A stretch of 64,000 nt of DNA from a virus. Position 1 is the first letter of the stretch. Every line of letters begins with the position of its first letter. The notes beneath the pieces were generated by a model. The model ran no database searches, was not told the DNA's origin, and saw nothing but the letters and a program-made list of their open reading frames with translations. The DNA is taken from positions 54,746 through 118,745 of the IMG/VR virus record IMGVR_UViG_3300022916_000006; one strand, written 5' to 3'. Shown here one piece after another: positions 5,321 through 64,000 of the stretch. Both the position numbers and the translations under genes were made by a program.

Positions 5321-5345
5321 GTAAATATGTTATAACTTTCATTGC
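5309..5345 (+). promoter_or_regulatory. Promoter-like element upstream of MoxR operon
   Basis: TAACTT at 5333-5338 followed by TCATTGCATGA matches the 3' half of the recurring phage element; 18 bases upstream is only a T-run, and the better TTGTTT (5306) is 21 bases away. A weak match, supported by its place before the 5399 operon. Confidence 0.4.
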
Positions 5346-5398
5346 ATGAAAAATTGAATAAAGATAAAATAGAGTTTTAAACAAAAAAGGAACCGTAA

Positions 5399-6526
5399 AT
5401 GAGAATAATCAAAACGACTGAATATGCTACCATACTGGAATTGTGCTACACTGCAAAACAGCCACTATTTATACAAGGTGGACCTGGAGTTGGTAAGAGT
5501 GAAATTCCACGACAAGTATTTTCTGAAATCGCTAAACGAGATAAACTTGAATTTGTCGAATGGGACAAATGCTCAAATGAGAAGAAGGCTAATTTATTTG
5601 TTAATCCAGATAAATATTTTGTATTTTGTGATCAGAGATTATCACAAATGGATACGACTGATTTAGGTGGGCTACCAATGCCAAGTGAAGCAAAAGATCG
5701 ACTGTTGAAAATTCCACAAGCGTGGATTGTTTATTTTTGTGATCAAAAATCAAATGGTGTTATTTTCTTTGATGAAATTAACTTAGCACCACCTGTTGTT
5801 ACTGGATCAGCATATCAGATCATTCTTGATAGATCAATGTCTGACATGAAATTATCCGATAATGTTTATGTGATGGCTGCTGGAAATAGATCAGAAGATC
5901 AAGCGTTCACACATCAAATGCCATTGCCACTACGTGACCGATTTAATGAAATTGAAATACGACCTGATAAGAAATCTTGGGTTAGTTGGGCATCTAAAAA
6001 TGGTGTGAATCCTCACTTGATTGCATTCATTAACTGGAAAGAAAGTTATCTATACAAAGTTGATCAAAACGCATCAAATAAAAGTGTAACTCCTCGTGGT
6101 ATTGTTCGGGCATCACATTTGCTTGGTGATTTGAATTTCTTGGGAAGTGTATCGAATACAAAGAAAGCAAGATTGTATCTTGATATTTCTGTTGGTGAAG
6201 GATTCTCACAAGAGTTCATGGCTTACATCAAATATTACAAAAAACTCAAATGGGATACTATTTACAAAAACCCAAAAGAAGCACTTGCTAAACTTGAACG
6301 AAATGAAATCTTTGCTGTTACTGGTGGATTGATTGAACATTACATGGGAACTAAATACAGCACTGATCAAATCATCAATGTCATTAAGTACTTGGGATCA
6401 GAATTCTCAATCATGACACTACGAATGATTAAAGATACTGATGAAGCTAAATTTATGAAAGTTGCATTGAAGAATAAAACTTTCATCTCTGAAATCACTG
6501 ACGATATTAAAAAATACTTACTATAA
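5399..6526 (+). CDS. MoxR-type AAA+ ATPase, 375 aa
   Basis: Walker A GGPGVGKS at residues 27-34, Walker B GVIFFDEI near 120, sensor-1 Asn in MAAGNRSED and an Arg-finger region in PLPLRDRF: a complete MoxR-family ATPase core, about the usual family length. MoxR ATPases act as chaperone-like remodelers with VWA-domain partners, and the next gene encodes exactly such a protein, so the two very likely form a functional pair. Good ribosome binding site (AAAAAGGAACCGTAAATG). A second ATPase/VWA pair lies at 34.1-37.9 kb. Confidence 0.9.
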   Translation: MRIIKTTEYATILELCYTAKQPLFIQGGPGVGKSEIPRQVFSEIAKRDKLEFVEWDKCSNEKKANLFVNPDKYFVFCDQRLSQMDTTDLGGLPMPSEAKDRLLKIPQAWIVYFCDQKSNGVIFFDEINLAPPVVTGSAYQIILDRSMSDMKLSDNVYVMAAGNRSEDQAFTHQMPLPLRDRFNEIEIRPDKKSWVSWASKNGVNPHLIAFINWKESYLYKVDQNASNKSVTPRGIVRASHLLGDLNFLGSVSNTKKARLYLDISVGEGFSQEFMAYIKYYKKLKWDTIYKNPKEALAKLERNEIFAVTGGLIEHYMGTKYSTDQIINVIKYLGSEFSIMTLRMIKDTDEAKFMKVALKNKTFISEITDDIKKYLL

Positions 6527-34052: not shown

Positions 34053-34095
34053 TTGTTTCACGTTATATTTTTTTCTTAACTTTAAGCAGTTATGA
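34053..34095 (+). promoter_or_regulatory. Phage promoter-like element
   Basis: TTGTTT (34053-34058), 18 bp, TAACTT (34077-34082), then TAAGCAGTTATGAGA. Best match to the consensus; precedes the VWA giant. Confidence 0.72.
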
Positions 34096-34109
34096 GAGGA
34101 CACAAACAC

Positions 34110-36488
34110 ATGAGAAGAACAAATTTTATTTCGAACTTAATCCCACAATTCGACAATACATTAGGTACAGATTCAAAACTACAAGATATCATGTACAAAG
34201 CTAATGCATTGAAACTAATCAAAAATTTTGTAAATGTTATATCAGATAAAACTGCCATTGTAAAGTTCAATACTACTGATGGAGCTGGTGGTGGTCGTGC
34301 ATCAATAACAGATAATGGTGAATATCAAGTATATATAAGTGGTAAACTAACAAAATCTACTTTTGATCATCATGTTGGTCTTGCACTACATGAAGCATCA
34401 CATCTAAGATACTCAGATATGGATTATCTTAAAAAAGTAATGGCACATGCACGATATAAGGAACTTGATCCACAATACATAACATCAGAAATGTACACTG
34501 ATGCACTTATCAAACTAGGTGTTCGTAGATCACAATTAACTGGTGCATATAAATCAATTGTTAATATAATTGAAGATCGTAGAATCGACACGTTAACATT
34601 TGAAGATGCTCCAGGATATCGAATGTACTATGAAGCATTATATAAAAAGTTTTATAGAAGTGCAATAGTGAACACTATGTTAAAATCATCAAAATATCGA
34701 GATGAAACACTTCAAAGTTATGTCGGTAGATTTTGTTATTTGATTAATAAAAATACTGATCTAAGTGCATTGAAAGAATTAAGTACAATAAATGATATGC
34801 TTGATATATCAAACATCACTAGACTTGATACTCCAGAAAAATTATTTAAACTTGGTACTGATATTTTAAATCATATATTAACTTCATTATTCACAACTAA
34901 AGAAGAGGAAGAAAAAAAAGAAGCAGAGTTGAATAACGAATCAGATGAAAATGAATCAGATGAAAACGAATCAGATGAAAATGAATCAGATGAAAATGAA
35001 TCAGATGAAAATGAATCAGATGAAAACGAATCAGATGAAAACGAATCAGATGAAAATGAATCAGATGAAAATGATGATGATGATGAAAATGAATCAGATG
35101 AAAATGAATCAGATGAAAACGAATCAGATGAAAATGAATCAGATGAAAACGAATCAGATGAAAATGATGATGATGAAAATGATGATGATGAAAATGATGA
35201 TGATGAAAATGATGATGATGATGAAAATGATGATGATGAAAATGATGATGATGAAAATGATGATGATGATGAAAATGATGATGATGATGATGATGAAAAT
35301 GATGATGATGATGATGATGATGGAACTGAATCAGATGAAAATGAATCAGATGAAAATGAATCAGATGATGATGGTGATGATGAACTTGAAGATTTAACTC
35401 CAAAAGAGGAAAAGAGTTTATACAGATCAATGAAAAAAATGGCTGGGTTTGTACATGATACACTTCAAAAACCAACAATGTCAGAAGGAAATGCAACAGC
35501 AATAACAGCATTTTCAAAAACAAAATCTACTGAGTTAATATCTTCATTTTCAGATATTCAGATACTTGAGATTGATGATATAAAAGCTACATCAGAAATG
35601 TCAAAAGTATTTCCATTTCTATCTCAACATAAACCATCAAGATATGTTGATGCAGTTGCACAGGGATTTATATCTGGAAAACAACTATCAAAAAAATTAT
35701 CAATAATCAATGATGATAAAACTACTATTAGAATGAGAACAAAACACGGAAATATCAGTCGAAGATTATTATCAAGTGCATCATTCAACTCTAATATATT
35801 TGATCAGAAAGTTACACAAGTATATGGTAATAGTTATATTCACATATCACTTGATGGTAGTGGTTCAATGTCTGGTTCAAGATGGGTCAGTGCTTTGACT
35901 ACAGCAACAGCAATTGCAGTTGCATGTGATATAGTTGGTAAATCTCATGTTGAAATCGCAATACGAACGCAAATGGATAATTCACCAGTAAGTGCTATCG
36001 TATATAATTCAAACGTAGATAAGATTTCAAAACTTAAAAATATACTTCCAATGATTACTCTTGATAGTTATACTCCAGAAGGATTATGTTTCGAATCATC
36101 AATGAATAGAATGATGTTAAATTCTAAAAAATCTCACAATTCATATTTTATTAATGTATCTGATGGTGAACCTTATGGTTGTTATCGTACAAATACACTA
36201 TCTCTAATGAAACGAACTGCAACTAGCAGATCAAATATGGATTCTACAACTTCAGTATTTAATGGAAGAAATGCTTTAGATTTTACAAAAAAACAAGTTG
36301 ACACAATTAAAAGTCATGGATTTAAAGTACTGAGTTATTTTGTGACTAGTGGGAAATCGGATGGTGGTGTTGATGATATGAAAGATATGTTCACTCATAT
36401 GTATGGTAAAGATGCATTTTTTGGTGATGTCAAATCTACCATTATTCTTGCTAAAAGTCTTAACAACATGATCATTGGTAATAAATAA
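34110..36488 (+). CDS. CobT-like zincin/VWA protein with giant acidic repeat linker, 792 aa
   Basis: Start at 34110 (MRRTNFISNLIPQ) after GAGAGGACACAAACAC; the ATG at 34092 lies in the promoter tail. HEASH near residues 94-98 (VGLALHEASHLRYSD) is a zincin motif. About residues 275-430 are an almost pure acidic repeat of ESDEN and DDDEN units. The C-terminal VWA domain has MIDAS DGSGS near residue 581 and ends near KSLNNMIIGNK. An acidic middle plus VWA is the CobT arrangement, and the next gene is a CobS/MoxR-like ATPase, so the pair likely forms a chelatase-like remodelling machine; involvement in cobalt insertion is not implied. Confidence 0.85.
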   Translation: MRRTNFISNLIPQFDNTLGTDSKLQDIMYKANALKLIKNFVNVISDKTAIVKFNTTDGAGGGRASITDNGEYQVYISGKLTKSTFDHHVGLALHEASHLRYSDMDYLKKVMAHARYKELDPQYITSEMYTDALIKLGVRRSQLTGAYKSIVNIIEDRRIDTLTFEDAPGYRMYYEALYKKFYRSAIVNTMLKSSKYRDETLQSYVGRFCYLINKNTDLSALKELSTINDMLDISNITRLDTPEKLFKLGTDILNHILTSLFTTKEEEEKKEAELNNESDENESDENESDENESDENESDENESDENESDENESDENESDENDDDDENESDENESDENESDENESDENESDENDDDENDDDENDDDENDDDDENDDDENDDDENDDDDENDDDDDDENDDDDDDDGTESDENESDENESDDDGDDELEDLTPKEEKSLYRSMKKMAGFVHDTLQKPTMSEGNATAITAFSKTKSTELISSFSDIQILEIDDIKATSEMSKVFPFLSQHKPSRYVDAVAQGFISGKQLSKKLSIINDDKTTIRMRTKHGNISRRLLSSASFNSNIFDQKVTQVYGNSYIHISLDGSGSMSGSRWVSALTTATAIAVACDIVGKSHVEIAIRTQMDNSPVSAIVYNSNVDKISKLKNILPMITLDSYTPEGLCFESSMNRMMLNSKKSHNSYFINVSDGEPYGCYRTNTLSLMKRTATSRSNMDSTTSVFNGRNALDFTKKQVDTIKSHGFKVLSYFVTSGKSDGGVDDMKDMFTHMYGKDAFFGDVKSTIILAKSLNNMIIGNK
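34936..35370 (+). repeat. In-frame DNA repeats coding the acidic linker
   Basis: Tandem 15-base units GAATCAGATGAAAAT/C (ESDEN) followed by GATGATGATGAAAAT-type units with 2-7 GAT codons. Synonymous AAT/AAC differences and variable GAT number show active expansion and contraction. Confidence 0.9.
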
Positions 36489-50896: not shown

Positions 50897-51780
50897 GTAC
50901 AGCTATATTAAATCTAACAGATGGATTTGAACCATATTTTGAAACATCTCTACCAGAGTTTAATTATGATTCATTCATATTTAATGGGGGAGAAGTTCAT
51001 TTTAAACTTGATCTTCATAATATGGGCTATCCAGCATATGATAAAGTCATAATCACATCTAGAGCATCATGTAGTGATGATATCATGAGAATATTAATTG
51101 CTAAAGATGCATTAGAACGTACTGGTGTTAAATCATTTGAATTGATAATGCCATATATCCCATATGCTCGTCAAGATAGAGTATGCGATGAAGGTGAATC
51201 GTTTTCATTGAAAGTATTTGCTAATATAATTAATTCAGCTGAATTTGATAAAGTGATAACATTAGATGCACATTCATTAGTGGCTCCTGCATTATTAAAC
51301 AATTGTGTTGATGGTAGTAATGAATCATACATATTAAATTCGGGACATGCTACTTGGAGAATTTTACAAGATGAAACAAAAGAATTATTATTAATATCAC
51401 CAGATATGGGAGCTAATAAGAAGTCTGAAAAATTAATGAGAGATTCTGATTTCAAAGAAATGATTCAATGTGATAAGACTCGTGATCCAAAGACTGGAAA
51501 ATTAACAGGATTCAAAGTACTTGCTGATGATCTTGGTGGATTACCGTGTTTGATTGCTGATGATGTTTGTGATGGTGGTGGAACTTTTATGGGATTAGCA
51601 GTAGAATTGAAAAAGAAAAATGCTGGTAATTTATATTTGTTTGTTACACATGGGATTTTCTCAAATGGATTTGATGAATTAAAGAAACATTTTAAATTGA
51701 TTTTTTGTACTGATTCATTCAGTGATTTGAGTGACAATGATAATGTTATACAATATAAGGTTGAAATATATAATATATGA
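50893..51780 (+). CDS. prs: Ribose-phosphate pyrophosphokinase (PRPP synthetase), 295 aa
   Basis: Start at the ATGA overlap (MSTAILNLTDGFEP). Recognised by MPYIPYARQDRVCDEGESFS, the LDAHS strand, the DDLGG segment and the PRPP-binding loop CLIADDVCDGGGTF. Converts ribose 5-phosphate and ATP to PRPP. Slightly shorter than bacterial Prs (about 310 aa), as usual in phages. It stands two genes before NAMPT, which needs PRPP, so it presumably supplies NAD salvage. Confidence 0.92.
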   Translation: MSTAILNLTDGFEPYFETSLPEFNYDSFIFNGGEVHFKLDLHNMGYPAYDKVIITSRASCSDDIMRILIAKDALERTGVKSFELIMPYIPYARQDRVCDEGESFSLKVFANIINSAEFDKVITLDAHSLVAPALLNNCVDGSNESYILNSGHATWRILQDETKELLLISPDMGANKKSEKLMRDSDFKEMIQCDKTRDPKTGKLTGFKVLADDLGGLPCLIADDVCDGGGTFMGLAVELKKKNAGNLYLFVTHGIFSNGFDELKKHFKLIFCTDSFSDLSDNDNVIQYKVEIYNI

Positions 51781-52745
51781 GTAGTATTGTTTTTACACCT
51801 AAAGATAAGCATCAAGCAATGATATTGATGGGTTTACCATTATCTGGTAAGAGTACGTGGATAGAAGATAATGTAACATTTGATGATAATATAAAATTAG
51901 TATCAGCAGATGATATAAAAGAAGCTCATCCTGATTATGATCCAAATCGTGCATGTGATTTACATCAGTATAGTGTAAAAGAAGCTAGAAAATTGATGGA
52001 TGAATATTCAGATAAGAAGCTTGATATTGTAATGGATGGTGGTGGTATAAATAATAATTATACTATTGAAATAATAAAAATGTTACGAAAGAAACGATAT
52101 ACTATAGGACTGGTACATATAAAAACACCATATACTGTGTGTATTGAACGAAATAAAAATAGAACGAGAAAAGTTCCAGATGAAGATATAATATATAAAG
52201 CAATACGAGAAAATGCACAGCGACATAAATTATCGATGTATGTTGATAAAATACATGTTGTTGATTATTTTTCAAACAAACATATCTTTGTTGATATGGA
52301 TGGAGTGATTGCCGCATTATCTACACTACCAATAATAAATGGTGAGATTGATTTTGTAAATGCTGAAGTTCATAAATACTTAAAACCAGTACATCAAGTA
52401 ATTAGTAAATTAAGAGAATTACAATTTAAAGGTCATGAGTTATATATATTATCAGCCATACCAAATTCATTTGCATATACAGAAAAGAATGAGTGGTTAG
52501 ATCGACATTTCAATATTCCAATTGATCGACGATTTTTTGTAAATCAAGGTAGACATAAAGTTGAGATGTTATGTAACCTAGCTGATAAATTAAAATTAGA
52601 TAGAAAAGACGTTACGATGTTAGATGATATACATGATACGTTATATAAAGTGAAAAGCCGTGGAATGAATAGTATGCATGTATCAGAATTTCTAGCAAAA
52701 GTTTTTGTACCAATTAATAATGATAAAAATAAAAAGGATAAATAA
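51777..52745 (+). CDS. Polynucleotide kinase/phosphatase-like protein, 322 aa
   Basis: N-terminal P-loop kinase GLPLSGKST (residues 19-27) with an SADD strand after it, and a C-terminal HAD phosphatase with FVDMDGVIA (Asp173, Asp175) and TMLDDIHDT near the end. This kinase-then-HAD order and length match T4 Pnk/PseT (301 aa). It may repair tRNA or DNA 5'/3' ends; given its position between prs and NAMPT, a nucleotide-level role in NAD metabolism is also possible. ATGA overlap with prs. Confidence 0.78.
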   Translation: MSSIVFTPKDKHQAMILMGLPLSGKSTWIEDNVTFDDNIKLVSADDIKEAHPDYDPNRACDLHQYSVKEARKLMDEYSDKKLDIVMDGGGINNNYTIEIIKMLRKKRYTIGLVHIKTPYTVCIERNKNRTRKVPDEDIIYKAIRENAQRHKLSMYVDKIHVVDYFSNKHIFVDMDGVIAALSTLPIINGEIDFVNAEVHKYLKPVHQVISKLRELQFKGHELYILSAIPNSFAYTEKNEWLDRHFNIPIDRRFFVNQGRHKVEMLCNLADKLKLDRKDVTMLDDIHDTLYKVKSRGMNSMHVSEFLAKVFVPINNDKNKKDK

Positions 52746-56823: not shown

Positions 56824-57030
56824 ATGATCAAACAAGAACGAGAAGCTATTGATTTAGCAATTGAACTTTGTGAAAAAGCACAATATGGACAGCGACACAT
56901 AAAACATTTAGAAAATATAAGACTGATATTAGAAGGTGTGGATACTCCTAAAGTATTGTTAATGTTAGAGCAGGCTAGAATAGCTAGTATCAAACATTGC
57001 AAAAAATGTGGTCAAGAAATAAAAAAATAA
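56824..57030 (+). CDS. Small protein with C-terminal CxxC, 68 aa
   Basis: Helical (EREAIDLAIELCEKAQYGQ, LMLEQARIASIK) ending in CKKCGQEIKK, a half zinc ribbon that would need dimerisation to bind metal. Weak leader (GAGAATGATAATATTATG). Not recognised. Confidence 0.6.
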   Translation: MIKQEREAIDLAIELCEKAQYGQRHIKHLENIRLILEGVDTPKVLLMLEQARIASIKHCKKCGQEIKK

Positions 57031-57045
57031 AAAAAAATGAAAAAA

Positions 57046-57081
57046 GTTGTTGACTTACTGATTTTACCCTATATTTATATA
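57046..57081 (+). promoter_or_regulatory. TTGACT-type promoter
   Basis: GTTGTTGACTTACTGATTTT then ACCCTATATTTATATAT, nearly identical to the pair at 45.05-45.18 kb. It reads towards the tRNA cluster. Confidence 0.65.
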
Positions 57082-57164
57082 TAGTAAGTGATGTAACTTA
57101 CATAAACGTTTTAACAGATAATAACTGTTGAATTAAGGAGAACAATAACTTATATTGTAAAATT

Positions 57165-57344
57165 ATGAGAATGTTAGTAGTAAATAGTAAAATTAATTTG
57201 AATGAATCGAATATTAGATTTATTGGGACTTGGGATATAAGTCTTGGTGTGATTGGTACGGATTGTCGTGACCATTATATGGAACATCAAGCGAGACTAC
57301 CAAGAACTGAAAATTTAATGAAACCGATTATATCATCAAACTAA
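57165..57344 (+). CDS. Hypothetical protein, 59 aa
   Basis: ATG 57165 reads MRMLVVNSKINLNES, FIGTWDISLGVIGTD and HQARLPRTENLMK. An AAGGAG lies 24 bases upstream, too far for a normal start, so the start is uncertain; the frame is clean and follows the TTGACT promoter. Confidence 0.42.
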   Translation: MRMLVVNSKINLNESNIRFIGTWDISLGVIGTDCRDHYMEHQARLPRTENLMKPIISSN

Positions 57345-57463
57345 TAATAAACTAATAAACTATAAAATACTAAACATAAAATATAACTCATAATCCTTAA
57401 ACTTTAAACAGTGTAGTTTTAAAGACACTTAAAAAACTTTAAATTTGACATAAGAAAAATATT

Positions 57464-57539
57464 GCAGTAGTAGTTCCAATTGGCTAGAACGTGAGATTTC
57501 CAATCTTGATGCTTATGGGTTCGAGTCCCATCTACTGCA
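57464..57539 (+). tRNA. tRNA-Gly(UCC)
   Basis: Acceptor GCAGTAG/CTACTGC, anticodon arm TGAGA-TTTCCAA-TCTTG (anticodon TCC), T arm ATGGG-TTCGAGT-CCCAT. Confidence 0.88.
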
Positions 57540-57543
57540 CACT

Positions 57544-57614
57544 GCGAATATAGTTCAGTGGAAGAACACAACGTTGCCAACGTTGGTATGAGAGTTCGAT
57601 TCTCTCTATTCGCT
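57544..57614 (+). tRNA. tRNA-Gly(GCC)
   Basis: Acceptor GCGAATA/TATTCGC, anticodon arm CAACG-TTGCCAA-CGTTG, T arm GAGAG-TTCGATT-CTCTC. Only four bases after the previous tRNA. Confidence 0.92.
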
Positions 57615-57724
57615 CAAATGAAAAAATAATTTAAAATAATTGTTTTTTTATATAGATTATATGTTATAGATTACATAACATAATTGAGATGCTATTTGAC
57701 ATTGTTGGTAACTGTTTTAATAAT

Positions 57725-57785
57725 TGCTATGTTCATGAAACACGGTACAGTAGTTCGCTACACATCAAAAGTAGTGAACATAGCA
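57725..57785 (+). ncRNA. Structured RNA candidate in tRNA cluster (A)
   Basis: TGCTATGTTCA (57725-57735) pairs perfectly with TGAACATAGCA (57775-57785), enclosing a GTAG-TTCG-CTAC tetraloop hairpin. No tRNA arms; ends eight bases before the next tRNA. Confidence 0.55.
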
Positions 57786-57792
57786 TAAGTTT

Positions 57793-57862
57793 GGCGATAT
57801 GTGATGGTTCACGTGAATGCTTCATACGTATTCATTGATCAGTTCGAAACTGGTTGTCGCTA
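57793..57862 (+). tRNA. tRNA with CAU anticodon (Met or Ile2)
   Basis: Acceptor GGCGATA/TGTCGCT (two wobbles), anticodon arm AATGC-TTCATAC-GTATT, T arm ATCAG-TTCGAAA-CTGGT. The D arm is small and poorly defined. Met versus lysidine-Ile cannot be told. Confidence 0.72.
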
Positions 57863-57864
57863 CT

Positions 57865-57950
57865 GTGTAGGTGGTTAGATTGGTAATACACTCGACTGTG
57901 AATCGAGTTGGAAGATGTTCCTCATGCGGGTTCAAATCCCGTCCTACACC
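57865..57950 (+). tRNA. tRNA-like gene with His(GUG) anticodon and long variable arm
   Basis: Acceptor GTGTAGG/CCTACAC, anticodon arm CTCGA-CTGTGAA-TCGAG (anticodon GTG), T arm GCGGG-TTCAAAT-CCCGT, C discriminator as in bacterial tRNA-His. Between anticodon and T arms lie 18 bases with a GGAA-GATG-TTCC hairpin, a type II variable arm that tRNA-His does not normally have. Confidence 0.8.
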
Positions 57951-57951
57951 C

Positions 57952-58039
57952 TATAGGATGGCGTGGTAGCCTGAGTGGAAAGATGTTTTGAGATAGGGAC
58001 CTCAAACTCATAGAAACTTGTAAGCCAATTACTCCTATA
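57952..58039 (+). tRNA. Atypical tRNA-like sequence (anticodon unclear)
   Basis: TATAGGA/TCCTATA make a perfect acceptor stem, and GTGGTAGCCTGAGTGGAAAG looks like a D arm; TTGAG/CTCAA encloses an eight-base loop (ATAGGGAC). No TTC-containing T loop is present, so it may be degenerate or need an unusual fold. Confidence 0.4.
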
Positions 58040-58043
58040 TTTT

Positions 58044-58123
58044 GGATGTTTAGCCCGACTGGTAAGGGGGGAATCTGTAAAATTTCTTAACCATCAAGAT
58101 GAGTTCGAATCTCTCAACATCCA
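58044..58123 (+). tRNA. tRNA-Tyr(GUA)
   Basis: Acceptor GGATGTT/AACATCC, anticodon arm GGAAT-CTGTAAA-ATTTC, extended variable region, T loop TTCGAAT with a weak outer stem. Confidence 0.82.
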
Positions 58124-58125
58124 CA

Positions 58126-58256
58126 AAGTGAAGTCTGATTAATAAATTGATTCTTTAATGCTTATTTGTAATATACTGAGAGTGTATTTATTTTATTGAA
58201 TTTTTATAATTACGCTGTATATTTAATTAAATAATGTATTTAACTAGACTTCACTT
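58126..58256 (+). ncRNA. Structured RNA candidate in tRNA cluster (B)
   Basis: AAGTGAAGTCT (58126-58136) pairs perfectly with AGACTTCACTT (58246-58256); inside is AATATAC-TGAGA-GTGTATT among AT-rich sequence. Fills the gap between tRNA-Tyr and tRNA-Asn. Confidence 0.5.
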
Positions 58257-58261
58257 AATTT

Positions 58262-58332
58262 GGTTTGGTAGCTCAATGGTAGAGCGTGGGGCTGTTAACC
58301 TCGTGACTAAGGTTCGATTCCTTATCAAACCG
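58262..58332 (+). tRNA. tRNA-Asn(GUU)
   Basis: Acceptor GGTTTGG/TCAAACC, anticodon arm TGGGG-CTGTTAA-CCTCG, T arm TAAGG-TTCGATT-CCTTA, G discriminator. Confidence 0.92.
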
Positions 58333-58336
58333 CAAT

Positions 58337-58408
58337 AGGAGTATGGTGTAACGGTAGCACACTGGACTTTGAATCCGGGAATGTCGAGTTCGATTCTCAC
58401 TACTTCTG
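58337..58408 (+). tRNA. tRNA-Gln(UUG)
   Basis: Acceptor AGGAGTA/TACTTCT, anticodon arm CTGGA-CTTTGAA-TCCGG, T loop TTCGATT, G discriminator as expected for Gln. Confidence 0.88.
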
Positions 58409-58439
58409 CAAAAATAAATAAAAATGATTTAAAAATTAT

Positions 58440-58514
58440 GGGCGGTTAGTATAAATGGACTAGTACACAAAACTTTCAATTTTGGGAATGCGAGTTCGAA
58501 TCTCGTACCGTCTA
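58440..58514 (+). tRNA. tRNA-Glu(UUC)
   Basis: Acceptor GGGCGGT/ACCGTCT, anticodon arm CAAAA-CTTTCAA-TTTTG, T arm GCGAG-TTCGAAT-CTCGT. Confidence 0.88.
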
Positions 58515-58551
58515 CAGACTTGGGACAGGAGTTCGATTCTCCTATCGCCTA
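58515..58551 (+). pseudogene. 3' tRNA remnant (T arm and acceptor half)
   Basis: AGGAG-TTCGATT-CTCCT is a perfect T arm, followed by ATCGCCTA. No 5' half precedes it; its acceptor half could pair with that of the adjacent tRNA-Glu, suggesting a partial duplication or deletion. Confidence 0.65.
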
Positions 58552-58571
58552 CAAAAAAAGGATATTACATT

Positions 58572-58847
58572 ATGAACATAGCACAAAAATTTATGGCTTA
58601 TGTCTTTAAATGGCAATATGTAAGATTGATACATGATTATCGTATGAATCAACCAGATTTAATTAGACGTGCGTATTCTATCGATGATAATTGGTTTGCT
58701 AATCCATATTTACCAAGTACAAGAGTACATTTAACATCTACTGGTACAGTATATAAAGGTAGATATATTATTGATTCTGTGAATTATGCTAGTTATATTG
58801 ATAGTTGGGAGCCAATTACAAAAGGTATGATTGCGTTGTATTTATGA
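58572..58847 (+). CDS. Probable divergent MKYYI-ELVA family protein, 91 aa (block 10)
   Basis: Start at ATG 58572 (MNIAQKFMAYVFKW), after AAAAAAGGATATTACATT; the longer frame reads through tRNA sequence. The N-terminus is unlike the family, but SWEPITKGMIALYL and an ATGA end fit. Middle: DDNWFANPYLPSTRVHL, YKGRYIIDSVNYASY. Possibly a distinct gene at the block head. Confidence 0.62.
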   Translation: MNIAQKFMAYVFKWQYVRLIHDYRMNQPDLIRRAYSIDDNWFANPYLPSTRVHLTSTGTVYKGRYIIDSVNYASYIDSWEPITKGMIALYL

Positions 58848-59062
58848 AATATTGTATTTACGATATAGTCAATGAGAAATATCATACCAAATATGGTAAA
58901 ATGTTTAATTATAAACATTGGCATGATGAATTGACGAGTGATGTACAATTGTTTGATTCATATGAAGATGCATTTGATCATTTAAATCATTGTGATATGG
59001 ATGATATAGTAACAATGATAAAAGAAGTAACAGATGCAGAAGCGGTGATAATGTTATTATGA
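58844..59062 (+). CDS. MKYYI-ELVA family protein, 72 aa
   Basis: MKYCIYDIVNEKYHTKYG start at the ATGA junction, KHWHDELTSDVQLFDSYEDA centre, EVTDAEAVIMLL end. The 'W...L.SDV.LFDSYEDAF' core is shared by the next copies of this block. Confidence 0.85.
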   Translation: MKYCIYDIVNEKYHTKYGKMFNYKHWHDELTSDVQLFDSYEDAFDHLNHCDMDDIVTMIKEVTDAEAVIMLL

Positions 59063-59280
59063 AATATTATATATATGATAACAAAGTAAAATTATATTTT
59101 AAAGAAATTGGATATTATGAAGAAGGTGAATGGTCGTATGATTTATCAATACGTGTTAGATTCTTTAATTCTAACATTGAGGCTCGAAATTACATGTTTA
59201 CGTGGTTGGAATATAAATGGTACAAACATCTAGAAGTGAAATCAATATCAGATGCAGAATATATTGTAAGAATATTATGA
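59059..59280 (+). CDS. MKYYI-ELVA family protein, 73 aa
   Basis: MKYYIYDNKVKLYFKE start, EGEWSYDLSIRVRFFNSNIEA centre, SISDAEYIVRIL end. The WYKHLEVKSISDAE strand matches 59277 (WYRDLEIRSISESA). Confidence 0.86.
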   Translation: MKYYIYDNKVKLYFKEIGYYEEGEWSYDLSIRVRFFNSNIEARNYMFTWLEYKWYKHLEVKSISDAEYIVRIL

Positions 59281-59531
59281 AATATTATATGAAATATTAT
59301 ATATATGATCGAGATGATCCTGAGGAAGTATATTATAATAAGTGTGATATCGATGATCGTAATTCAATGTTCCCCTCAAGGTGGTCCAATAAAATTACAA
59401 GTGAACTTAGATTATTTGATTCATATGAAGATGCTTTTAACTACTCACAACAATGGTCTGATAATATATGGTATCGTGATTTAGAAATAAGATCAATATC
59501 AGAATCAGCGTTTGTGGCAACCATATTATGA
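59277..59531 (+). CDS. MKYYI-ELVA family protein, 84 aa
   Basis: MKYYMKYYIYDRDDPEE: the start sequence ATGAAATATTAT is duplicated, giving a doubled MKYY. PSRWSNKITSELRLFDSYEDA centre, SISESAFVATIL end. A longer frame from inside the previous gene is not used. Confidence 0.86.
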   Translation: MKYYMKYYIYDRDDPEEVYYNKCDIDDRNSMFPSRWSNKITSELRLFDSYEDAFNYSQQWSDNIWYRDLEIRSISESAFVATIL

Positions 59532-59773
59532 AATATTATATAGTGGATAAGTATGAGGATGTAACTTCAATATATTATATAGGAAACCATCGTTGGTATT
59601 CTACATTAAGTAATAATATAAAATTATTTACAACTAGATATTATGCAAAAAAATATATTACATTGAATCTTAATGTTGTGCATCATATCTTTTATAATGG
59701 GATCATACATGGGAATGGTTGCTATGTGATAAAATCAATATCAGATGAAGAAGCTGTAATAACAAAATTATAA
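59528..59773 (+). CDS. MKYYI-ELVA family protein, 81 aa (last of block 10)
   Basis: MKYYIVDKYEDVTSIYYIG start, HRWYSTLSNNIKLFTTRYYA centre, SISDEEAVITKL end. TAA stop only eight bases before tRNA-Leu(CAA), so mRNA and tRNA must be separated by processing. Confidence 0.85.
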   Translation: MKYYIVDKYEDVTSIYYIGNHRWYSTLSNNIKLFTTRYYAKKYITLNLNVVHHIFYNGIIHGNGCYVIKSISDEEAVITKL

Positions 59774-59780
59774 AATAAAT

Positions 59781-59862
59781 GGTTCTGTGGTGGAACGTAT
59801 ACACGCTGTACTCAAAATGCAGTGATCGAAAGGTCGTGAGAGTTCAAATCTCTCCAGAACTA
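59781..59862 (+). tRNA. tRNA-Leu(CAA)
   Basis: Acceptor GGTTCTG/CAGAACT, anticodon arm CTGTA-CTCAAAA-TGCAG, long variable arm (GATC-GAAA-GGTC), T arm GAGAG-TTCAAAT-CTCTC. Confidence 0.92.
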
Positions 59863-59874
59863 CAATAAAGAATT

Positions 59875-59958
59875 GGTCCTGTGGTGGAATGGTAGACACA
59901 TCAGATTTAAAATCTGTGGCTCTTTATGGGCGTGAGAGTTCAAGTCTCTCCAGGACTA
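59875..59958 (+). tRNA. tRNA-Leu(UAA)
   Basis: Acceptor GGTCCTG/CAGGACT, anticodon loop TTTAAAA between CAGA and TCTG, long variable arm, T arm GAGAG-TTCAAGT-CTCTC. Very similar to the preceding Leu tRNA in both acceptor and T arms. Confidence 0.92.
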
Positions 59959-60047
59959 CAAAAATAAAAAAAATAAATGTTTTTTTATATTAATAAAATG
60001 TAATATATTTACATAGTTAATTGATAACAAAAGTAAGGAAATCACAC

Positions 60048-60260
60048 ATGAGTAATTTATTTGATAGAATGTTTCCACCAGAGAATTATCCAAAATATAT
60101 GTTTAGATTGTTGAAAGATTTTGGTGATCATAAAGCTGATACTGAGTTTGATTGCTGTGGTGGAAATGTACGAGGTATATCAACTAAGAGTGGAGCAACG
60201 ATTAATTTTGATGATAGTGACTATTTTGAATACGTTGGAGAGGTTGAAAACAATGTCTAA
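60048..60260 (+). CDS. Hypothetical protein, 70 aa
   Basis: Start at 60048 (MSNLFDRMFPPENYP) after AAGGAAATCACAC. KADTEFDCCGGNVRGIST and INFDDSDYFEYVGEV form a beta-rich end with a vicinal Cys pair. A weak promoter-like AT-rich stretch lies at 59977-60030. Overlaps the next gene by eight bases. Confidence 0.6.
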   Translation: MSNLFDRMFPPENYPKYMFRLLKDFGDHKADTEFDCCGGNVRGISTKSGATINFDDSDYFEYVGEVENNV

Positions 60261-60486
60261 ACAAAATATCAAAAGATTTTTAGGAACAAGATTTCATGTT
60301 TCTAAACATGGTGAACGAGAACTACGTAAACATCAGTTGAATCCAATAAAAGCTATGCAACGTCTTACAGTTGAGTTAGCAAAAAATGATGATAGAGGTG
60401 GTGTTTATGTTGAATCAAATGGTAAGTTGTGGAGAAAGAATAAACACGTTTCTCCAGAAGAATTGTTTAATCAATTAGAAAAATAA
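60253..60486 (+). CDS. Hypothetical basic protein, 77 aa
   Basis: Start at ATG 60253 (MSKQNIKRFLGTRFHVS) inside the previous gene's end, with GGAGAGG upstream. SKHGERELRKHQLNPIKAM and GGVYVESNGKLWRKNKHVS; alpha/beta. Not recognised. Confidence 0.6.
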   Translation: MSKQNIKRFLGTRFHVSKHGERELRKHQLNPIKAMQRLTVELAKNDDRGGVYVESNGKLWRKNKHVSPEELFNQLEK

Positions 60487-60498
60487 AGGATTAATGAT

Positions 60499-60699
60499 AT
60501 GAAAGTAACCATGCCACTAACAGTTGGTAGATTATTATGTGGTACAGTAAGAGACTTTTTAAATAAATGTAAGTTTCAAGGAATGGATATTACATTTATA
60601 GAATCTTCTGGATGGATTGAACGAGACTTTATTGTCAAAGGTTCTAGAAAAGATATTGAAACTATTAGAATTTCAATACAAAATTATATAAATGCTTAA
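60499..60699 (+). CDS. Hypothetical protein, 66 aa
   Basis: AAAGGATTAATGATATG leader. VGRLLCGTVRDFLNKCKFQG, WIERDFIVKGSRKDIETI: beta-alpha-beta-like with two Cys; resembles in layout the 42915 product (DLEWEID..V.G.KKEI). Ends ten bases before the split tRNA. Confidence 0.58.
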   Translation: MKVTMPLTVGRLLCGTVRDFLNKCKFQGMDITFIESSGWIERDFIVKGSRKDIETIRISIQNYINA

Positions 60700-60708
60700 A
60701 AAAACAAT

Positions 60709-60740
60709 GGGTGCGTAGCTCAGCTTGGTAGAGCATTATT
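60709..60740 (+). tRNA. Split tRNA 1, 5' half
   Basis: GGGTGCG acceptor half followed by a normal D arm (TAGCTCAGCTTGGTAGAGCA) and then unrelated sequence. Its acceptor half pairs 7/7 with CGCACCT at 61771-61777. Confidence 0.75.
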
Positions 60741-60766
60741 GTTTTTAGTTTTTTGAAATATTAAAA

Positions 60767-60838
60767 TGGTCCATAGGTTAACTGGTAAACCAAATGACTT
60801 TTAATCATTAATTCTCAGTTCGAGTCTGAGTGGGCCAA
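60767..60838 (+). tRNA. tRNA-Lys(UUU), complete, inside split tRNA 1
   Basis: Acceptor TGGTCCA/TGGGCCA, anticodon arm AATGA-CTTTTAA-TCATT, T arm with TTCGAGT (CTCAG/CTGAG). Confidence 0.92.
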
Positions 60839-60904
60839 CTTAAATAAATTTTTAATCAAAAAACATAGGTTCGACTATATTTATTAGTATAGGAGAATTT
60901 ATAA

Positions 60905-61732
60905 ATGAAGAAATGTAAAAAATGTGGTGATGAATTTGAACCACGAAAAGGATTGATAAGTTATTGTTCTTTGTCATGTAGAAACACAAGAGTACATTCA
61001 GAAGAAACTAAAAAGAAAATATCAGATACGAATTCTGGTAAATATTTTGGAACATATGCATTACCAAAAAAATGTAAATATTGTGAAAAAGTATTAGTAG
61101 ATTATTTACGCAAAGCAAATACTTGTAATGGTTGTAAACCGTATGTTCTTAATATAAAATTATTTGAAAAATTAAATATACATGAAACTGATTTAGGTAA
61201 AGCTAACATATTAGCATGTGATAAATTAATTGATTTATATTATTCTAACAATAAATCATTAAGTGAGATATATGAAGAATATAATATACGTGGTAATACC
61301 ATATATTATTTTTTAAAGAAAAACGGAATACCACTACGGACAGTACGTGATGGAGTTAGATTAGCTATTGCATCTGGAAAGATAATAACACCAGTAAATA
61401 AACAATATAAGTCAGGTATACATACGACATGGTTTAATAAAGATATCTTTATGCGTAGTTCATATGAATTTAGATTTGCAACACATTTAGATAAACAGAA
61501 AGTTTTTTACCAATATGAGAAACAATTTGAATATTACTTTGATGATTTATATAGAACATATAGAGCTGATTTTTTTATTCCAGATTGGAATCTTGTGGTT
61601 GAAACAAAAAGTAGATACTATTATGAAAAAGATAAAAAAAAGATTGGAATACAAAGGCAAGCAGTGTTAGATTCAGGGTATGAATTTGTATTGTTATTAG
61701 ATGAAGATGAAATTGATAATTTTAATAAATAA
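60905..61732 (+). CDS. PD-(D/E)XK homing-type endonuclease inside split tRNA 1, 275 aa
   Basis: N-terminal zinc knuckles (CKKCGDEFEPRKG, YCSLSCRNT; CKYCEKV, CNGC) with a NUMOD3-like HSEETKKKISDTNSGK stretch; an HTH near residues 115-145 (EIYEEYNIRGNTIYYFLKKN). C-terminal nuclease: SSYEFRFATHLDKQKVFY, then YRADFFIPDWNLVVETKSRY, which supplies the D...ExK active site. Such proteins are phage homing endonucleases. Its TAA directly precedes the tRNA 3' half. GGAGAATTTATAAATG leader. Confidence 0.8.
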   Translation: MKKCKKCGDEFEPRKGLISYCSLSCRNTRVHSEETKKKISDTNSGKYFGTYALPKKCKYCEKVLVDYLRKANTCNGCKPYVLNIKLFEKLNIHETDLGKANILACDKLIDLYYSNNKSLSEIYEEYNIRGNTIYYFLKKNGIPLRTVRDGVRLAIASGKIITPVNKQYKSGIHTTWFNKDIFMRSSYEFRFATHLDKQKVFYQYEKQFEYYFDDLYRTYRADFFIPDWNLVVETKSRYYYEKDKKKIGIQRQAVLDSGYEFVLLLDEDEIDNFNK

Positions 61733-61778
61733 GGTCTTTTAAACCATTGGTCGTCGGGTTCAAATCCCACCGCACCTA
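61733..61778 (+). tRNA. Split tRNA 1, 3' half
   Basis: Starts immediately after the endonuclease TAA. GGT-CTTTTAA-ACC could be an anticodon loop (UUU, Lys) or part of a variable arm; then GTCGGG-TTCAAAT-CCCAC and CGCACCT acceptor half with A discriminator. Confidence 0.72.
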
Positions 61779-61783
61779 CAAAT

Positions 61784-61981
61784 ATGAAGTACTATATAAT
61801 ATCACATAGAGAAGATGATAAAGGTGATCCTCTAATATCTGATGCAATTGATTTAAATGAAGCAAAAGATTTATTAGCTGAAATTATGGATGCTTTTACT
61901 GGGAGTATAATTTTTCCAGATGCTACATCAGATGATTTTGAAATCGTTGATGAAAATGAAGCAGTGGCATATTTGTTATGA
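61784..61981 (+). CDS. MKYYI-ELVA family protein, 65 aa (block 11)
   Basis: MKYYIISHREDDKGDPLIS start five bases after the tRNA half, no Trp, AIDLNEAKDLLAEIMDA helix, IVDENEAVAYLL end. Acidic, compact, no ribosome binding site visible. Confidence 0.82.
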   Translation: MKYYIISHREDDKGDPLISDAIDLNEAKDLLAEIMDAFTGSIIFPDATSDDFEIVDENEAVAYLL

Positions 61982-62160
61982 AATATGTTTTAAAATATAC
62001 TATAGATGGTGAATATGTAAGTAAAGATTGTGATACTTATGTATCTAAAATGAGAGATGCTATAGTATTTGATTTAAAAGAAGATGCTGAATCTGAAGCT
62101 GGTGTGACGGAGCGTATAATCGAAATGACAGATGCAGAATATATAGTTAAAATATTATGA
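61978..62160 (+). CDS. MKYYI-ELVA family protein, 60 aa
   Basis: MKYVLKYTIDGEYVSKD start, KMRDAIVFDLKEDAESEA centre, MTDAEYIVKIL end. No Trp. ATGA on both sides. Confidence 0.83.
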   Translation: MKYVLKYTIDGEYVSKDCDTYVSKMRDAIVFDLKEDAESEAGVTERIIEMTDAEYIVKIL

Positions 62161-62429
62161 AGAAGAAAACTGATATCAAGAAAATTCATATTAAATCCAA
62201 TGGTAGTTTTTTTATGAAATCGAAAGATATTTTCGATGATAAAGAGAAATCATTAAAACTTATTAAAAAATTACAAAAGAGTGTTGATCATTATATAGGA
62301 AAAACTAATAAATATAAATGTAAACATTGTAAAAAAATAGTAGAACGTGATAGTGATAAACAATGGATTAAAAGTTATTGTGATGTGACTGGAAAGAATG
62401 TACATTTGATATTGATAAAGAAAAAATAA
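62157..62429 (+). CDS. Basic zinc-knuckle protein, 90 aa
   Basis: Enters through ATGA from the array gene but has no family features. Very Lys-rich; CKHCKKIVERDSDKQ and SYCDVTGKNVHL provide a possible CxxC...C...H site. Could bind RNA or DNA. Ends five bases before tRNA-Leu(UAG). Confidence 0.62.
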   Translation: MKKKTDIKKIHIKSNGSFFMKSKDIFDDKEKSLKLIKKLQKSVDHYIGKTNKYKCKHCKKIVERDSDKQWIKSYCDVTGKNVHLILIKKK

Positions 62430-62433
62430 AAAT

Positions 62434-62517
62434 GGCTGATTGGTGGAATTGGTATACACGCTGGCCTTAGGTCCCAGTATCCGAAAGGGTGTAAGAGTTC
62501 GAGTCTCTTATCAGCTA
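62434..62517 (+). tRNA. tRNA-Leu(UAG)
   Basis: Acceptor GGCTGAT/ATCAGCT, anticodon loop CTTAGGT between CTGG and CCAG (one C-C mismatch at the loop), long variable arm (ATCC-GAAA-GGGT), T arm AAGAG-TTCGAGT-CTCTT. Confidence 0.88.
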
Positions 62518-62530
62518 CATGAAAACATAT

Positions 62531-62606
62531 GCCTCAGTATCGCCTCGGATTTCTAACCCGTAGAAAGCGTAACGGACACATAAAGGTTCGAATCCTTTCT
62601 GGGGTA
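62531..62606 (+). tRNA. Atypical tRNA-Arg(UCU)-like gene lacking a D arm
   Basis: Acceptor GCCTCAG/CTGGGGT, TCGGA-TTTCTAA-CCCGT gives anticodon TCT, T arm AAAGG-TTCGAAT-CCTTT. Only seven bases separate acceptor and anticodon stem, while about 20 bases with a CCGT/ACGG hairpin sit where the variable arm should be. Total length (76) is normal. Confidence 0.6.
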
Positions 62607-62628
62607 CAAGTAATTGCGAATTACGTAT

Positions 62629-62708
62629 ATAATAATATATTGTCTAGTAGTCAATTCCAATGACTTTAATATTTCCTATGGATGGAAAGCTAGATGATGT
62701 GTTATTAT
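62629..62708 (+). ncRNA. Structured RNA candidate in tRNA cluster (C)
   Basis: 62629-62647 pairs with 62690-62708 over 19 positions, four of them G.U on the same side, closing on TCTAG/CTAGA. Inside are two hairpins, GTCA-attccaa-TGAC and TTTCC-tatggat-GGAAA: a three-way-junction shape with no tRNA arms. Confidence 0.6.
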
Positions 62709-62729
62709 CTGAATAAAATAAAAAATTAT

Positions 62730-62762
62730 GCTGACATTACCTAAGCGGTCGACAGCAGGATT
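62730..62762 (+). tRNA. Split tRNA 2, 5' half
   Basis: GCTGACA acceptor half, D arm TTACCTAAGCGGTCGACAGC and GGATT (likely 5' anticodon strand). Its acceptor half pairs 7/7 with TGTCAGC at 63921-63927. Confidence 0.75.
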
Positions 62763-62770
62763 TATATAAT

Positions 62771-62843
62771 GCTTCTATATGCTTAACTGGAAAAGCAACT
62801 GCCTTGTAAGCAGAAGTTCGGGGTTCGGTTCCTCGTAGAAGCC
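62771..62843 (+). tRNA. tRNA-Thr(UGU), complete, inside split tRNA 2
   Basis: Acceptor GCTTCTA/TAGAAGC, anticodon arm ACTGC-CTTGTAA-GCAGA (T27/43 mismatch tolerated), T arm CGGGG-TTCGGTT-CCTCG. Confidence 0.9.
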
Positions 62844-62867
62844 CAACAAAAAAAAATTGAAAAAAGT

Positions 62868-62911
62868 AGTTCGATTTTCATTGTTGGCTTATATTTATAT
62901 ATATATATAAG
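62868..62911 (+). promoter_or_regulatory. Possible promoter of endonuclease gene
   Basis: TTCGATTTTCATTGTTGGCT then TATATTTATATATA resembles the downstream half of the TTGACT-type promoters (CTATATTTATATAT). A similar TTCGACTATATTTATTA lies before the other endonuclease gene at about 60870. Confidence 0.4.
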
Positions 62912-62926
62912 AACGGAGAATTGAAT

Positions 62927-63877
62927 ATGTATAAATGTAAATATTGTAATAAAGAATGTAAAACGTATCAGTCGTTAGGTGGTCATACAGTCAAATGTAA
63001 TGATAATCCGAAAAAAGATGAGTATATAAAAAAAGCTAATAAAGCAAAAACACACGAACGAAATGAATATGAATTTGAGTGTAAAAAATGTAATAAAATA
63101 TATAGCGTAGAATTAACTGAAAATCAATTAAAGAAAAATCAATTTAAAAAGCACTGTAGCAGAGCGTGTGCGAATAGTAGAACCTGGTCAGATGAAGATA
63201 AAGTTAAAAAAAGTATAAGTAGTAAAACATCTAATTTTGTACGAGAATCACGAGAAAATAGATGGAAAGACTATAAAAAGAAAGTAAAAAAGGTAAGGGC
63301 TAGTTCATATATTAAGGTTAAAAATCCTAAAAAGCCTGGACCTATGCGAGCCGTGAGACGTATTGTATATTGTAAACATTGTAATGTTAAATTTGAAGTA
63401 TATAATAAATCAATTCAAAAGTTTTGTTCACAGCCATGTTCGAATGATTTTAGACGTGCAAATAAATCGTATAAAAAAATGATGAGTGAACAAATGAAAT
63501 TACAATATAAAAATGGTCGTAAAATATATGGTGGGCACGACAATGTTAAGTGGTATGAATATAATGGAATTAAAGTGCACGGTACGTGGGAATTGCGAAC
63601 TTGTAAAATTTTAGATAAGTGGAAACGAATTGGTAAAATTATAAATTGGGAATATGAATCAACACTACATAGATTTCAATATGTAAATGATACTGGACAA
63701 CATACATATATACCAGATTTTGCGATTTATAATGTTGATGGTACAGTTAGTATTCTTGAAATAAAGGGATTGAAGCGTGATGATGTTGATTTAAAAACAA
63801 AATCAACATTAAAAGCTGGATATCAAATTGAAATTTGGGATGATATTAAAACAATAAAAAGATATGAGTTGGAGTAA
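62927..63877 (+). CDS. PD-(D/E)XK homing-type endonuclease inside split tRNA 2, 316 aa
   Basis: Start ATG 62927 with GGAG eight bases upstream. Three N-terminal zinc modules: CKYCNKECKTYQSLGGHTVKC (C2HC), CKKCNK with CSRACAN, and CKHCNVKFE with CSQPCSN. C-terminal nuclease: VHGTWELRTCKILDKWK, then YIPDFAIYNVDGTVSILEIK with the D...ExK residues. Same architecture as the 60905 protein with an extra finger and no clear HTH. Its TAA overlaps the 3' anticodon strand of the split tRNA. Confidence 0.8.
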   Translation: MYKCKYCNKECKTYQSLGGHTVKCNDNPKKDEYIKKANKAKTHERNEYEFECKKCNKIYSVELTENQLKKNQFKKHCSRACANSRTWSDEDKVKKSISSKTSNFVRESRENRWKDYKKKVKKVRASSYIKVKNPKKPGPMRAVRRIVYCKHCNVKFEVYNKSIQKFCSQPCSNDFRRANKSYKKMMSEQMKLQYKNGRKIYGGHDNVKWYEYNGIKVHGTWELRTCKILDKWKRIGKIINWEYESTLHRFQYVNDTGQHTYIPDFAIYNVDGTVSILEIKGLKRDDVDLKTKSTLKAGYQIEIWDDIKTIKRYELE

Positions 63878-63928
63878 TCAGGTGGATAGATAAGTTCTCC
63901 CACGTAGGTTCGAATCCTACTGTCAGCT
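63876..63928 (+). tRNA. Split tRNA 2, 3' half
   Basis: AATCA (complementary to GATT of the 5' half), a long variable region, T arm GTAGG-TTCGAAT-CCTAC and acceptor half TGTCAGC. The two halves would make a type II tRNA interrupted in the anticodon loop, so its identity is lost. Confidence 0.73.
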
Positions 63929-63946
63929 CAAATAAAAAGGAAAAAA

Positions 63947-64000
63947 ATGACTGATCTAAAAGAAAAACTAATAGCACTTGCTGTTGTAGTATTTTGTGTT
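63947..64000 (+). CDS. Membrane or exported protein, 3' end outside window
   Basis: ATG after AAAAAGGAAAAAA reads MTDLKEKLIALAVVVFCV and continues past the end; the hydrophobic run suggests a signal anchor. Confidence 0.55.
   Translation, partial: MTDLKEKLIALAVVVFCV

What the first reader, a model, noticed from the sequence alone, without database searches (positions are those of the whole stretch)
60709..61778. Split tRNA 1: halves 1 kb apart enclosing a complete tRNA and an endonuclease gene
GGGTGCG plus D arm and T arm plus CGCACCT pair 7/7 across an insert that contains tRNA-Lys(UUU) and a PD-(D/E)XK homing-type gene whose stop codon touches the 3' half. It resembles an intron or homing insertion in the anticodon region, but carrying a complete tRNA inside is not something I know. 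The inner tRNA might compensate for the broken one.
Basis: partly seen in the sequence, partly recalled or inferred. Interest (0 to 1): 0.78.

Follow-up and report, generated by a model that had tools for sequence, protein, structure and literature searches.

The report
Broken tRNA with replacement-carrying homing gene
A phage lysine-tRNA gene has been cut in two by an inserted unit that holds an intact lysine tRNA plus a DNA-cutting "homing" gene; relatives of that gene sit beside lysine-tRNA genes in many other viruses, which suggests that selfish DNA cutters travel with a spare copy of the tRNA they break.

Summary
The halves at 60709-60737 and 61733-61778 join into an ordinary tRNA-Lys(UUU): the acceptor pairs 7/7, and the joined sequence aligns at 76-81% identity over nearly its whole length to intact phage tRNAs, with one extra base in the T stem. 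No group I or II intron was found; the outer copy looks like a decaying pseudogene. The insert is an intact tRNA-Lys(UUU), a 66-nt promoter-like leader and a PD-(D/E)XK-type endonuclease gene. The endonuclease's first ~46 residues are 63-65% identical to those of a family of HNH homing endonucleases. Across 35 viral contigs, genes of that family sit beside tRNA-Lys(UUU): 18 of 31 adjacent tRNAs, against 7 of 394 others. In 13 contigs the tRNA ends 51-76 nt upstream of the gene, as here. Several of these genes interrupt, overlap or abut tRNA pieces. Best reading: a tRNA-Lys plus homing-endonuclease unit inserted into another tRNA-Lys gene, the inner tRNA taking over. The same plan recurs 2 kb away (tRNA-Thr(UGU) plus endonuclease inside a split class II tRNA). 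It is a new variant of tRNA-associated phage homing endonucleases, not a spliced tRNA. Cutting and homing are inferred, not tested.

The parts
60709..60737 (+). 5' half of outer tRNA-Lys(UUU): acceptor GGGTGCG, D arm, first 2 nt of the anticodon stem
   Evidence: sequence; ARAGORN on joined halves; alignment to intact tRNAs
60738..60766 (+). AT-rich spacer; resembles the leader that follows the tRNA 5' remnant in L121/L126
   Evidence: alignment A3
60767..60838 (+). inner, intact tRNA-Lys(UUU), 65.2 bits
60839..60904 (+). 66-nt leader with promoter-like GGTTCGACTATATTTATTAG, shared with relatives' tRNA-Lys-to-endonuclease gaps
   Evidence: alignment A3
60905..61732 (+). HEG1: 275 aa, N-terminal zinc module (res. 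1-46) plus C-terminal PD-(D/E)XK / phage endonuclease I-like domain
61733..61778 (+). 3' half of outer tRNA-Lys(UUU): anticodon arm from nt 29, variable loop, T arm with one extra base, acceptor CGCACCT, A73
62730..62763 (+). second case: 5' half of a class II tRNA (GCTGACA...), D stem degraded
   Evidence: sequence; 7/7 pairing with 3' half
62771..62844 (+). second case: inner intact tRNA-Thr(UGU)
62921..63877 (+). second case: HEG2, 318 aa, zinc fingers plus DUF1064 / endonuclease domain (PD-(D/E)XK by inference)
63875..63928 (+). second case: 3' half with long variable arm, T arm, acceptor TGTCAGC; overlaps the HEG2 stop codon
   Evidence: sequence

Best explanation
A phage tRNA-Lys(UUU) gene was interrupted in its anticodon stem by a homing unit made of an intact tRNA-Lys(UUU), a short promoter-like leader and a free-standing endonuclease gene. 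Shown: the anatomy; the halves belong to one tRNA; no recognisable intron; the outer copy carries an extra T-stem base; the endonuclease's N-terminal zinc module is shared with HNH endonucleases that in many viral contigs sit next to tRNA-Lys(UUU), most often 51-76 nt downstream of it, and in several contigs interrupt, overlap or abut tRNA pieces. Inferred: the endonuclease cuts tRNA-Lys genes lacking it, break repair copies the endonuclease with its linked tRNA-Lys into the cut gene, the target is left as two halves, and the linked intact tRNA-Lys supplies the lost function. The broken tRNA is then a pseudogene, not a substrate for splicing.
For: Joined halves = tRNA-Lys(UUU) and align end to end with intact phage tRNAs with a single insertion. 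0/300 shuffles. No intron. HEG1 N-terminal module 63-65% identical over 46 aa to HNH endonucleases of L004-L007. In those loci the endonuclease ORF runs 15 nt into a complete tRNA-Lys(UUU), with a 5' remnant of a tRNA-Lys before the gene. Across 35 loci tRNA-Lys(UUU) makes 18 of 31 adjacent tRNAs versus 7 of 394 others, with 13 complete copies 51-76 nt upstream of the start codon; window gap 66 nt (60839-60904). Shared leader GTTCGAnTTnATATTTATA. L195 and L196 carry the same N-module on a PD-(D/E)XK-like domain, so nuclease swapping on this module recurs. L133 is a tRNA split by the same endonuclease family without an inner tRNA (by eye). The architecture occurs twice in this window.
Against: No close relative with an empty site. 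The complete nesting (matched 5' half, intact tRNA, endonuclease, matched 3' half) was found only in this contig, not in the 35 relatives; in those, orphan 3' pieces mostly lack a matching 5' half nearby. The inner tRNA-Lys is not especially close to endonuclease-linked tRNA-Lys genes of relatives: its best match is a tRNA-Thr. The fold search gave no confident structure match. Contig loci are related by descent, so the Fisher p value overstates independence. Cleavage specificity is untested.
Confidence: 0.7

Rival explanations
1. Plain endonuclease insertion plus independent tRNA shuffling: the endonuclease alone split the outer tRNA-Lys (as in L133), and the inner tRNA-Lys came to lie there by ordinary rearrangement of a scrambled tRNA array; they are not a moving unit.
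For: The array has other tRNA debris (58527-58550, 57838-57861, 62531-62606). L133 shows a split tRNA without inner tRNA. Full nesting was not seen elsewhere. The inner tRNA-Lys resembles several tRNA types.
Against: The tRNA-Lys(UUU)-gap-endonuclease order and the ~60-nt leader recur in many contigs.
Confidence: 0.22
2. Functional split tRNA: the halves are joined at the RNA level, by an intron too divergent to be recognised, by trans-splicing, or by RNA repair enzymes.
For: Acceptor stem forms across the insert in the minimum-energy fold of the 1070-nt transcript. A kinase-phosphatase ORF resembling T4 Pnkp (51777-52745: AAA_33 plus HAD-like hits) is in the window.
Against: No Rfam intron at E<=5. 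Insert ends pair no better than shuffles. T-stem insertion in the outer tRNA. No RNA ligase by PF09414 or RtcB in the 118.7-kb contig; the PF09511 search had no ringing control, and the contig is incomplete. An intact tRNA with the same anticodon removes the need.
Confidence: 0.05
3. Coincidence: two unrelated tRNA fragments that happen to pair.
For: tRNA fragments are common in this array.
Against: 1.5% of random half pairs reach 7/7; joined length and identity are those of one tRNA.
Confidence: 0.03

Closest known systems
SegB of phages T4/T6 (GIY-YIG free-standing homing endonuclease of the tRNA region; PMC13096335)
   Same: Free-standing phage endonuclease gene next to tRNAs, cuts inside tRNA genes, drives amplification of a tRNA segment
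   Different: Different catalytic domain (GIY-YIG from general knowledge); SegB association showed no isotype preference in that paper, whereas this family is strongly tied to tRNA-Lys(UUU); here the target tRNA is left split around an intact tRNA
I-Ssp6803I, PD-(D/E)XK endonuclease in the tRNA-fMet group I intron of Synechocystis (from memory; Bonocora and Shub 2001 is cited in PMC3984707)
   Same: PD-(D/E)XK-type endonuclease located in the anticodon region of a tRNA gene
   Different: No intron here, insertion in the anticodon stem, and no match to it in the solved-structure sequence search
HNH endonucleases with N-module MKKCKKCG.EFEP.KGLI.YCSL.CRNSR in IMG/VR phage contigs
   Same: Same N-terminal zinc module, same tRNA-Lys(UUU) neighbourhood, same leader
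   Different: HNH instead of PD-(D/E)XK nuclease in most; most do not show a complete split tRNA around the unit
Genomic islands that integrate into tRNA genes and rebuild them (general knowledge)
   Same: A tRNA target is interrupted while its function is kept
   Different: The insert codes for no integrase; here a separate complete tRNA lies inside the insert instead of a rebuilt end (the L103-L107 loci are closer to the rebuilding type)

Membership tests
Free-standing phage homing endonuclease | nuclease domain of a homing-associated fold | tested here: met
   PHROG endonuclease / resolvase hits at E about 6e-7 and Pfam Phage_endo_I at 6e-4, the latter below its cut-off; C-terminal alpha-beta core at pLDDT about 80-94; Foldseek inconclusive
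Free-standing phage homing endonuclease | not inside an intron or intein | tested here: met
   no Rfam intron at E<=5
Free-standing phage homing endonuclease | cuts alleles that lack it and is copied into them | not testable with these tools
   needs purified protein and co-infection
Group I intron in a tRNA gene | catalytic core recognisable by covariance model | tested here: not met
Group I intron in a tRNA gene | insertion in the anticodon loop | tested here: not met
   3' half retains the stem from nt 29 and the whole loop
Split / trans-spliced tRNA of archaeal type | pairing of leader sequences at the junction | tested here: not met
   duplex of the flanking segments weaker than the shuffle mean
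SegB-type tRNA-region endonuclease | GIY-YIG catalytic domain | tested here: not met
   Pfam scan shows no GIY-YIG match
SegB-type tRNA-region endonuclease | association with tRNA genes | tested here: met
tRNA-Lys-linked endonuclease family (N-module defined here) | N-terminal zinc module and tRNA-Lys(UUU) about 50-76 nt upstream | tested here: met
   module 63-65% identity; gap 66 nt; enrichment

The most novel reading that the evidence does not exclude
Endonuclease plus linked tRNA forms a poison-and-antidote drive: the endonuclease destroys the tRNA-Lys(UUU) genes of competing phages and carries its own replacement, whose sequence escapes its own cutting and which also serves as an anti-defence tRNA. 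The two inner tRNAs here, Lys(UUU) and Thr(UGU), are the two prime targets of the PARIS nuclease AriB (PMC12409363), and endonuclease-adjacent tRNAs more often lack the TTC T loop (10/31 versus 25/394).
Probability: 0.2. Interest if true: 0.75.

Novelty: new variant of a known kind. Interest (0 to 1): 0.52.

Why it matters
Phage tRNA arrays are thought to serve codon usage or defence evasion. A homing endonuclease family tied to one isoacceptor, tRNA-Lys(UUU), a known target of anticodon nucleases, links selfish mobility to tRNA turnover: it can explain how phage tRNAs get broken, duplicated and replaced, and gives a testable system of cutting and compensation. Two different nuclease domains on one N-terminal module also point to that module as the target-recognition part.

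Tried and rejected
Intron model search on 60600-64000: none. Exact scans of IMG/VR for the 5' half and for the 3' end: nothing, so no empty site. Relatives by the prohibitin-like and NAMPT proteins: only distant; the best NAMPT match (L017) has no tRNA array. HEG2 relatives in IMG/VR: none. RNA ligase and RtcB in the contig: none. Genome contigs: matches mostly to the HNH core only, not used for the tRNA statistics. Solved-structure sequence search and Foldseek: only weak matches, several to PD-(D/E)XK-fold nucleases. My first split-tRNA detector missed the known case because it demanded a 4-bp T stem; relaxed. A matched 5' half around the relatives' tRNA-Lys-endonuclease units was sought and not found.

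Full report
Observation. The window is the last 64 kb of a 118,745-bp IMG/VR virus record. ARAGORN finds 12 tRNAs in it, one of them tRNA-Lys(UUU) at 60767-60839 (Rfam 65.2 bits). The flanking pieces at 60709-60737 and 61733-61778 are not called alone, but joined they give tRNA-Lys(ttt). The acceptor pairs 7/7 with one G-U. None of 300 dinucleotide shuffles of 57001-64000 gives one such pair, and only 1.5% of random pairs of real tRNA halves reach 7/7, against 89% of true tRNAs. BLASTN of the joined 75 nt finds intact phage tRNAs, the best of them at 76-81% identity over 96-100% of its length. Aligned with three of them and with a tRNA-Lys of L002, the joined sequence has an extra base in the T stem. 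So the halves belong to one tRNA-Lys(UUU), interrupted in the anticodon stem near nt 28|29, and that gene shows a structure-breaking change.

Not an intron. Rfam at E<=5 finds no group I or group II intron in 60600-64000. The segments at the insert ends pair more weakly than the mean of shuffles. The acceptor stem does form across the insert in the minimum-energy fold, but it could do so in any transcript holding both halves. The contig has a kinase-phosphatase ORF resembling T4 Pnkp, yet no ligase by PF09414 or RtcB; the PF09511 search had no positive control, and the contig is incomplete.

The endonuclease. ORF 60905-61732 has an N-terminal zinc module with a NUMOD3 match and a C-terminal domain with weak matches to phage endonuclease I and resolvase families. 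The model has a confident N-module (pLDDT about 85) and a C-terminal helix-strands-helix-strand core (pLDDT about 80-94), with a poor middle. Foldseek gives no confident match; several weak ones are PD-(D/E)XK-fold nucleases. PD-(D/E)XK is therefore likely by motif and order of elements, not proven. A full-length relative at about 30% identity sits in the tRNA array of Lak phages.

The family and its habitat. The first 46 residues are 63-65% identical to those of HNH endonucleases in L004-L007. There the ORF (5001-5618) runs 15 nt into a complete tRNA-Lys(UUU) (from 5604), and a 5' remnant of a tRNA-Lys lies just before the gene. L107 shows the same; in L108 the ORF overlaps a complete tRNA-Lys, and in L109 a tRNA-Trp. 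An alignment search brought 80 IMG/VR loci. In 35 of them, one per contig or near-identical contig group, 18 of 31 adjacent tRNAs are Lys(UUU) against 7 of 394 others (Fisher p 4e-18; loci are related, so this is descriptive). Thirteen have the complete tRNA-Lys(UUU) ending 51-76 nt before the start codon; five more (L132, L139, L144, L146, L148) have a CTTTTAA anticodon arm upstream that ARAGORN did not report as tRNA-Lys(UUU). The window has the same order with a 66-nt gap, and the gap carries the shared leader GTTCGAnTTnATATTTATA. L195 and L196 carry the same N-module on a PD-(D/E)XK-like domain. After the endonuclease stop codon, tRNA 3' pieces are frequent (L125, L133, L140, L142, L143, L145, L146, L148, L153, read by eye). 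L133 is a tRNA split by such a gene (GCGCTCG / CGGGCGC), without an inner tRNA (by eye).

Second case in the window. 62730-63928 repeats the plan: a 5' half, tRNA-Thr(UGU), an endonuclease gene, and a 3' half with 7/7 acceptor pairing whose start overlaps the stop codon. The outer tRNA is class II (long variable arm; perhaps Ser, by inference) and its D stem is degraded. HEG2 has no relative in IMG/VR by the peptide search.

Mechanism. Shown: anatomy, common origin of the halves, no recognisable intron, the tRNA-Lys link of the N-module family. Inferred: that HEG1 cuts tRNA-Lys genes; that repair brought in the endonuclease with its tRNA-Lys; that the inner tRNA compensates. Precedent: SegB of T6 cuts within tRNA genes and amplifies a tRNA-Tyr segment to escape Septu (PMC13096335). 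The complete nesting was not found in other loci, and the inner tRNA-Lys is not especially close to endonuclease-linked tRNA-Lys sequences, so a separate arrival of the inner tRNA remains a serious rival.

Speculation, marked as such. PARIS AriB prime targets are tRNA-Lys(UUU) and tRNA-Thr(UGU) (PMC12409363), the two inner tRNAs here. With n=2 and noticed after the fact this is only a lead. Endonuclease-adjacent tRNAs also lack the TTC T loop more often (10/31 versus 25/394); the window's inner tRNA-Lys does not lack it.

Verdict. A real, well-formed case: a tRNA-Lys pseudogene split by an insert that carries an endonuclease gene and an intact tRNA with the same anticodon. The kind (phage endonucleases that live in and cut tRNA arrays) is known; the nesting, the tRNA-Lys(UUU) link and the nuclease swap on one module were not described in the papers I could search.

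Noticed in passing
window 62730-63928: Second nested split tRNA: class II tRNA halves around tRNA-Thr(UGU) and a second endonuclease gene (62921-63877), whose stop codon overlaps the 3' half.
   Followed up: partly
window 58440-58552: tRNA-Glu is followed directly by a second, orphan T arm plus acceptor end (58527-58550) that can pair 7/7 (with G-U) with the same 5' acceptor strand.
   Followed up: no
window 57838-57861, 57952-58045, 62531-62606: Further tRNA debris: orphan T arm; decayed tRNA with TATAGGA/TCCTATA ends; weak tRNA-Arg(UCU)-like gene with a shrunken D arm (27.3 bits, below the cut-off).
   Followed up: no
window 58805-59773 and 61784-62160: Tandem family of small ORFs starting MKYYI/MKYCI with a similar tail, some overlapping stop to start; one copy begins 5 nt after the split tRNA's 3' half.
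   Followed up: no
L004, L005, L019, L059, L065, L072, L096: Many tRNA-like units with nearly constant ends AGTCAGGTGGCGGAATGGTAGACGC ... ACAGGTTCGAATCCTGTCCTGACT and highly variable middles, several per contig.
   Followed up: no
L014 6642-6855, L015 3023-3185 (Lak phages): tRNA-Asn(GUU)-like genes interrupted in the anticodon loop by an insert shared between two different tRNAs; the insert itself holds a tRNA-like CTACATAA...TTATGTAG structure; no Rfam intron match.
   Followed up: partly
L129, L131, L136, L140, L142, L144, L146-L149, L153: Endonuclease-adjacent tRNA-Lys genes whose T loop lacks TTC (for example GGATCGTTACC, GGAGCGTTACC); among ARAGORN-called tRNAs 10/31 adjacent versus 25/394 others.
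   Followed up: partly
window 51777-52745: Kinase plus HAD-like phosphatase ORF resembling T4 polynucleotide kinase-phosphatase, next to PRPP synthetase-like and NAMPT-like ORFs.
   Followed up: no
window 34092-36488: 798-aa ORF with a long run of DEN/ESDEN repeats between two less repetitive parts.
   Followed up: no
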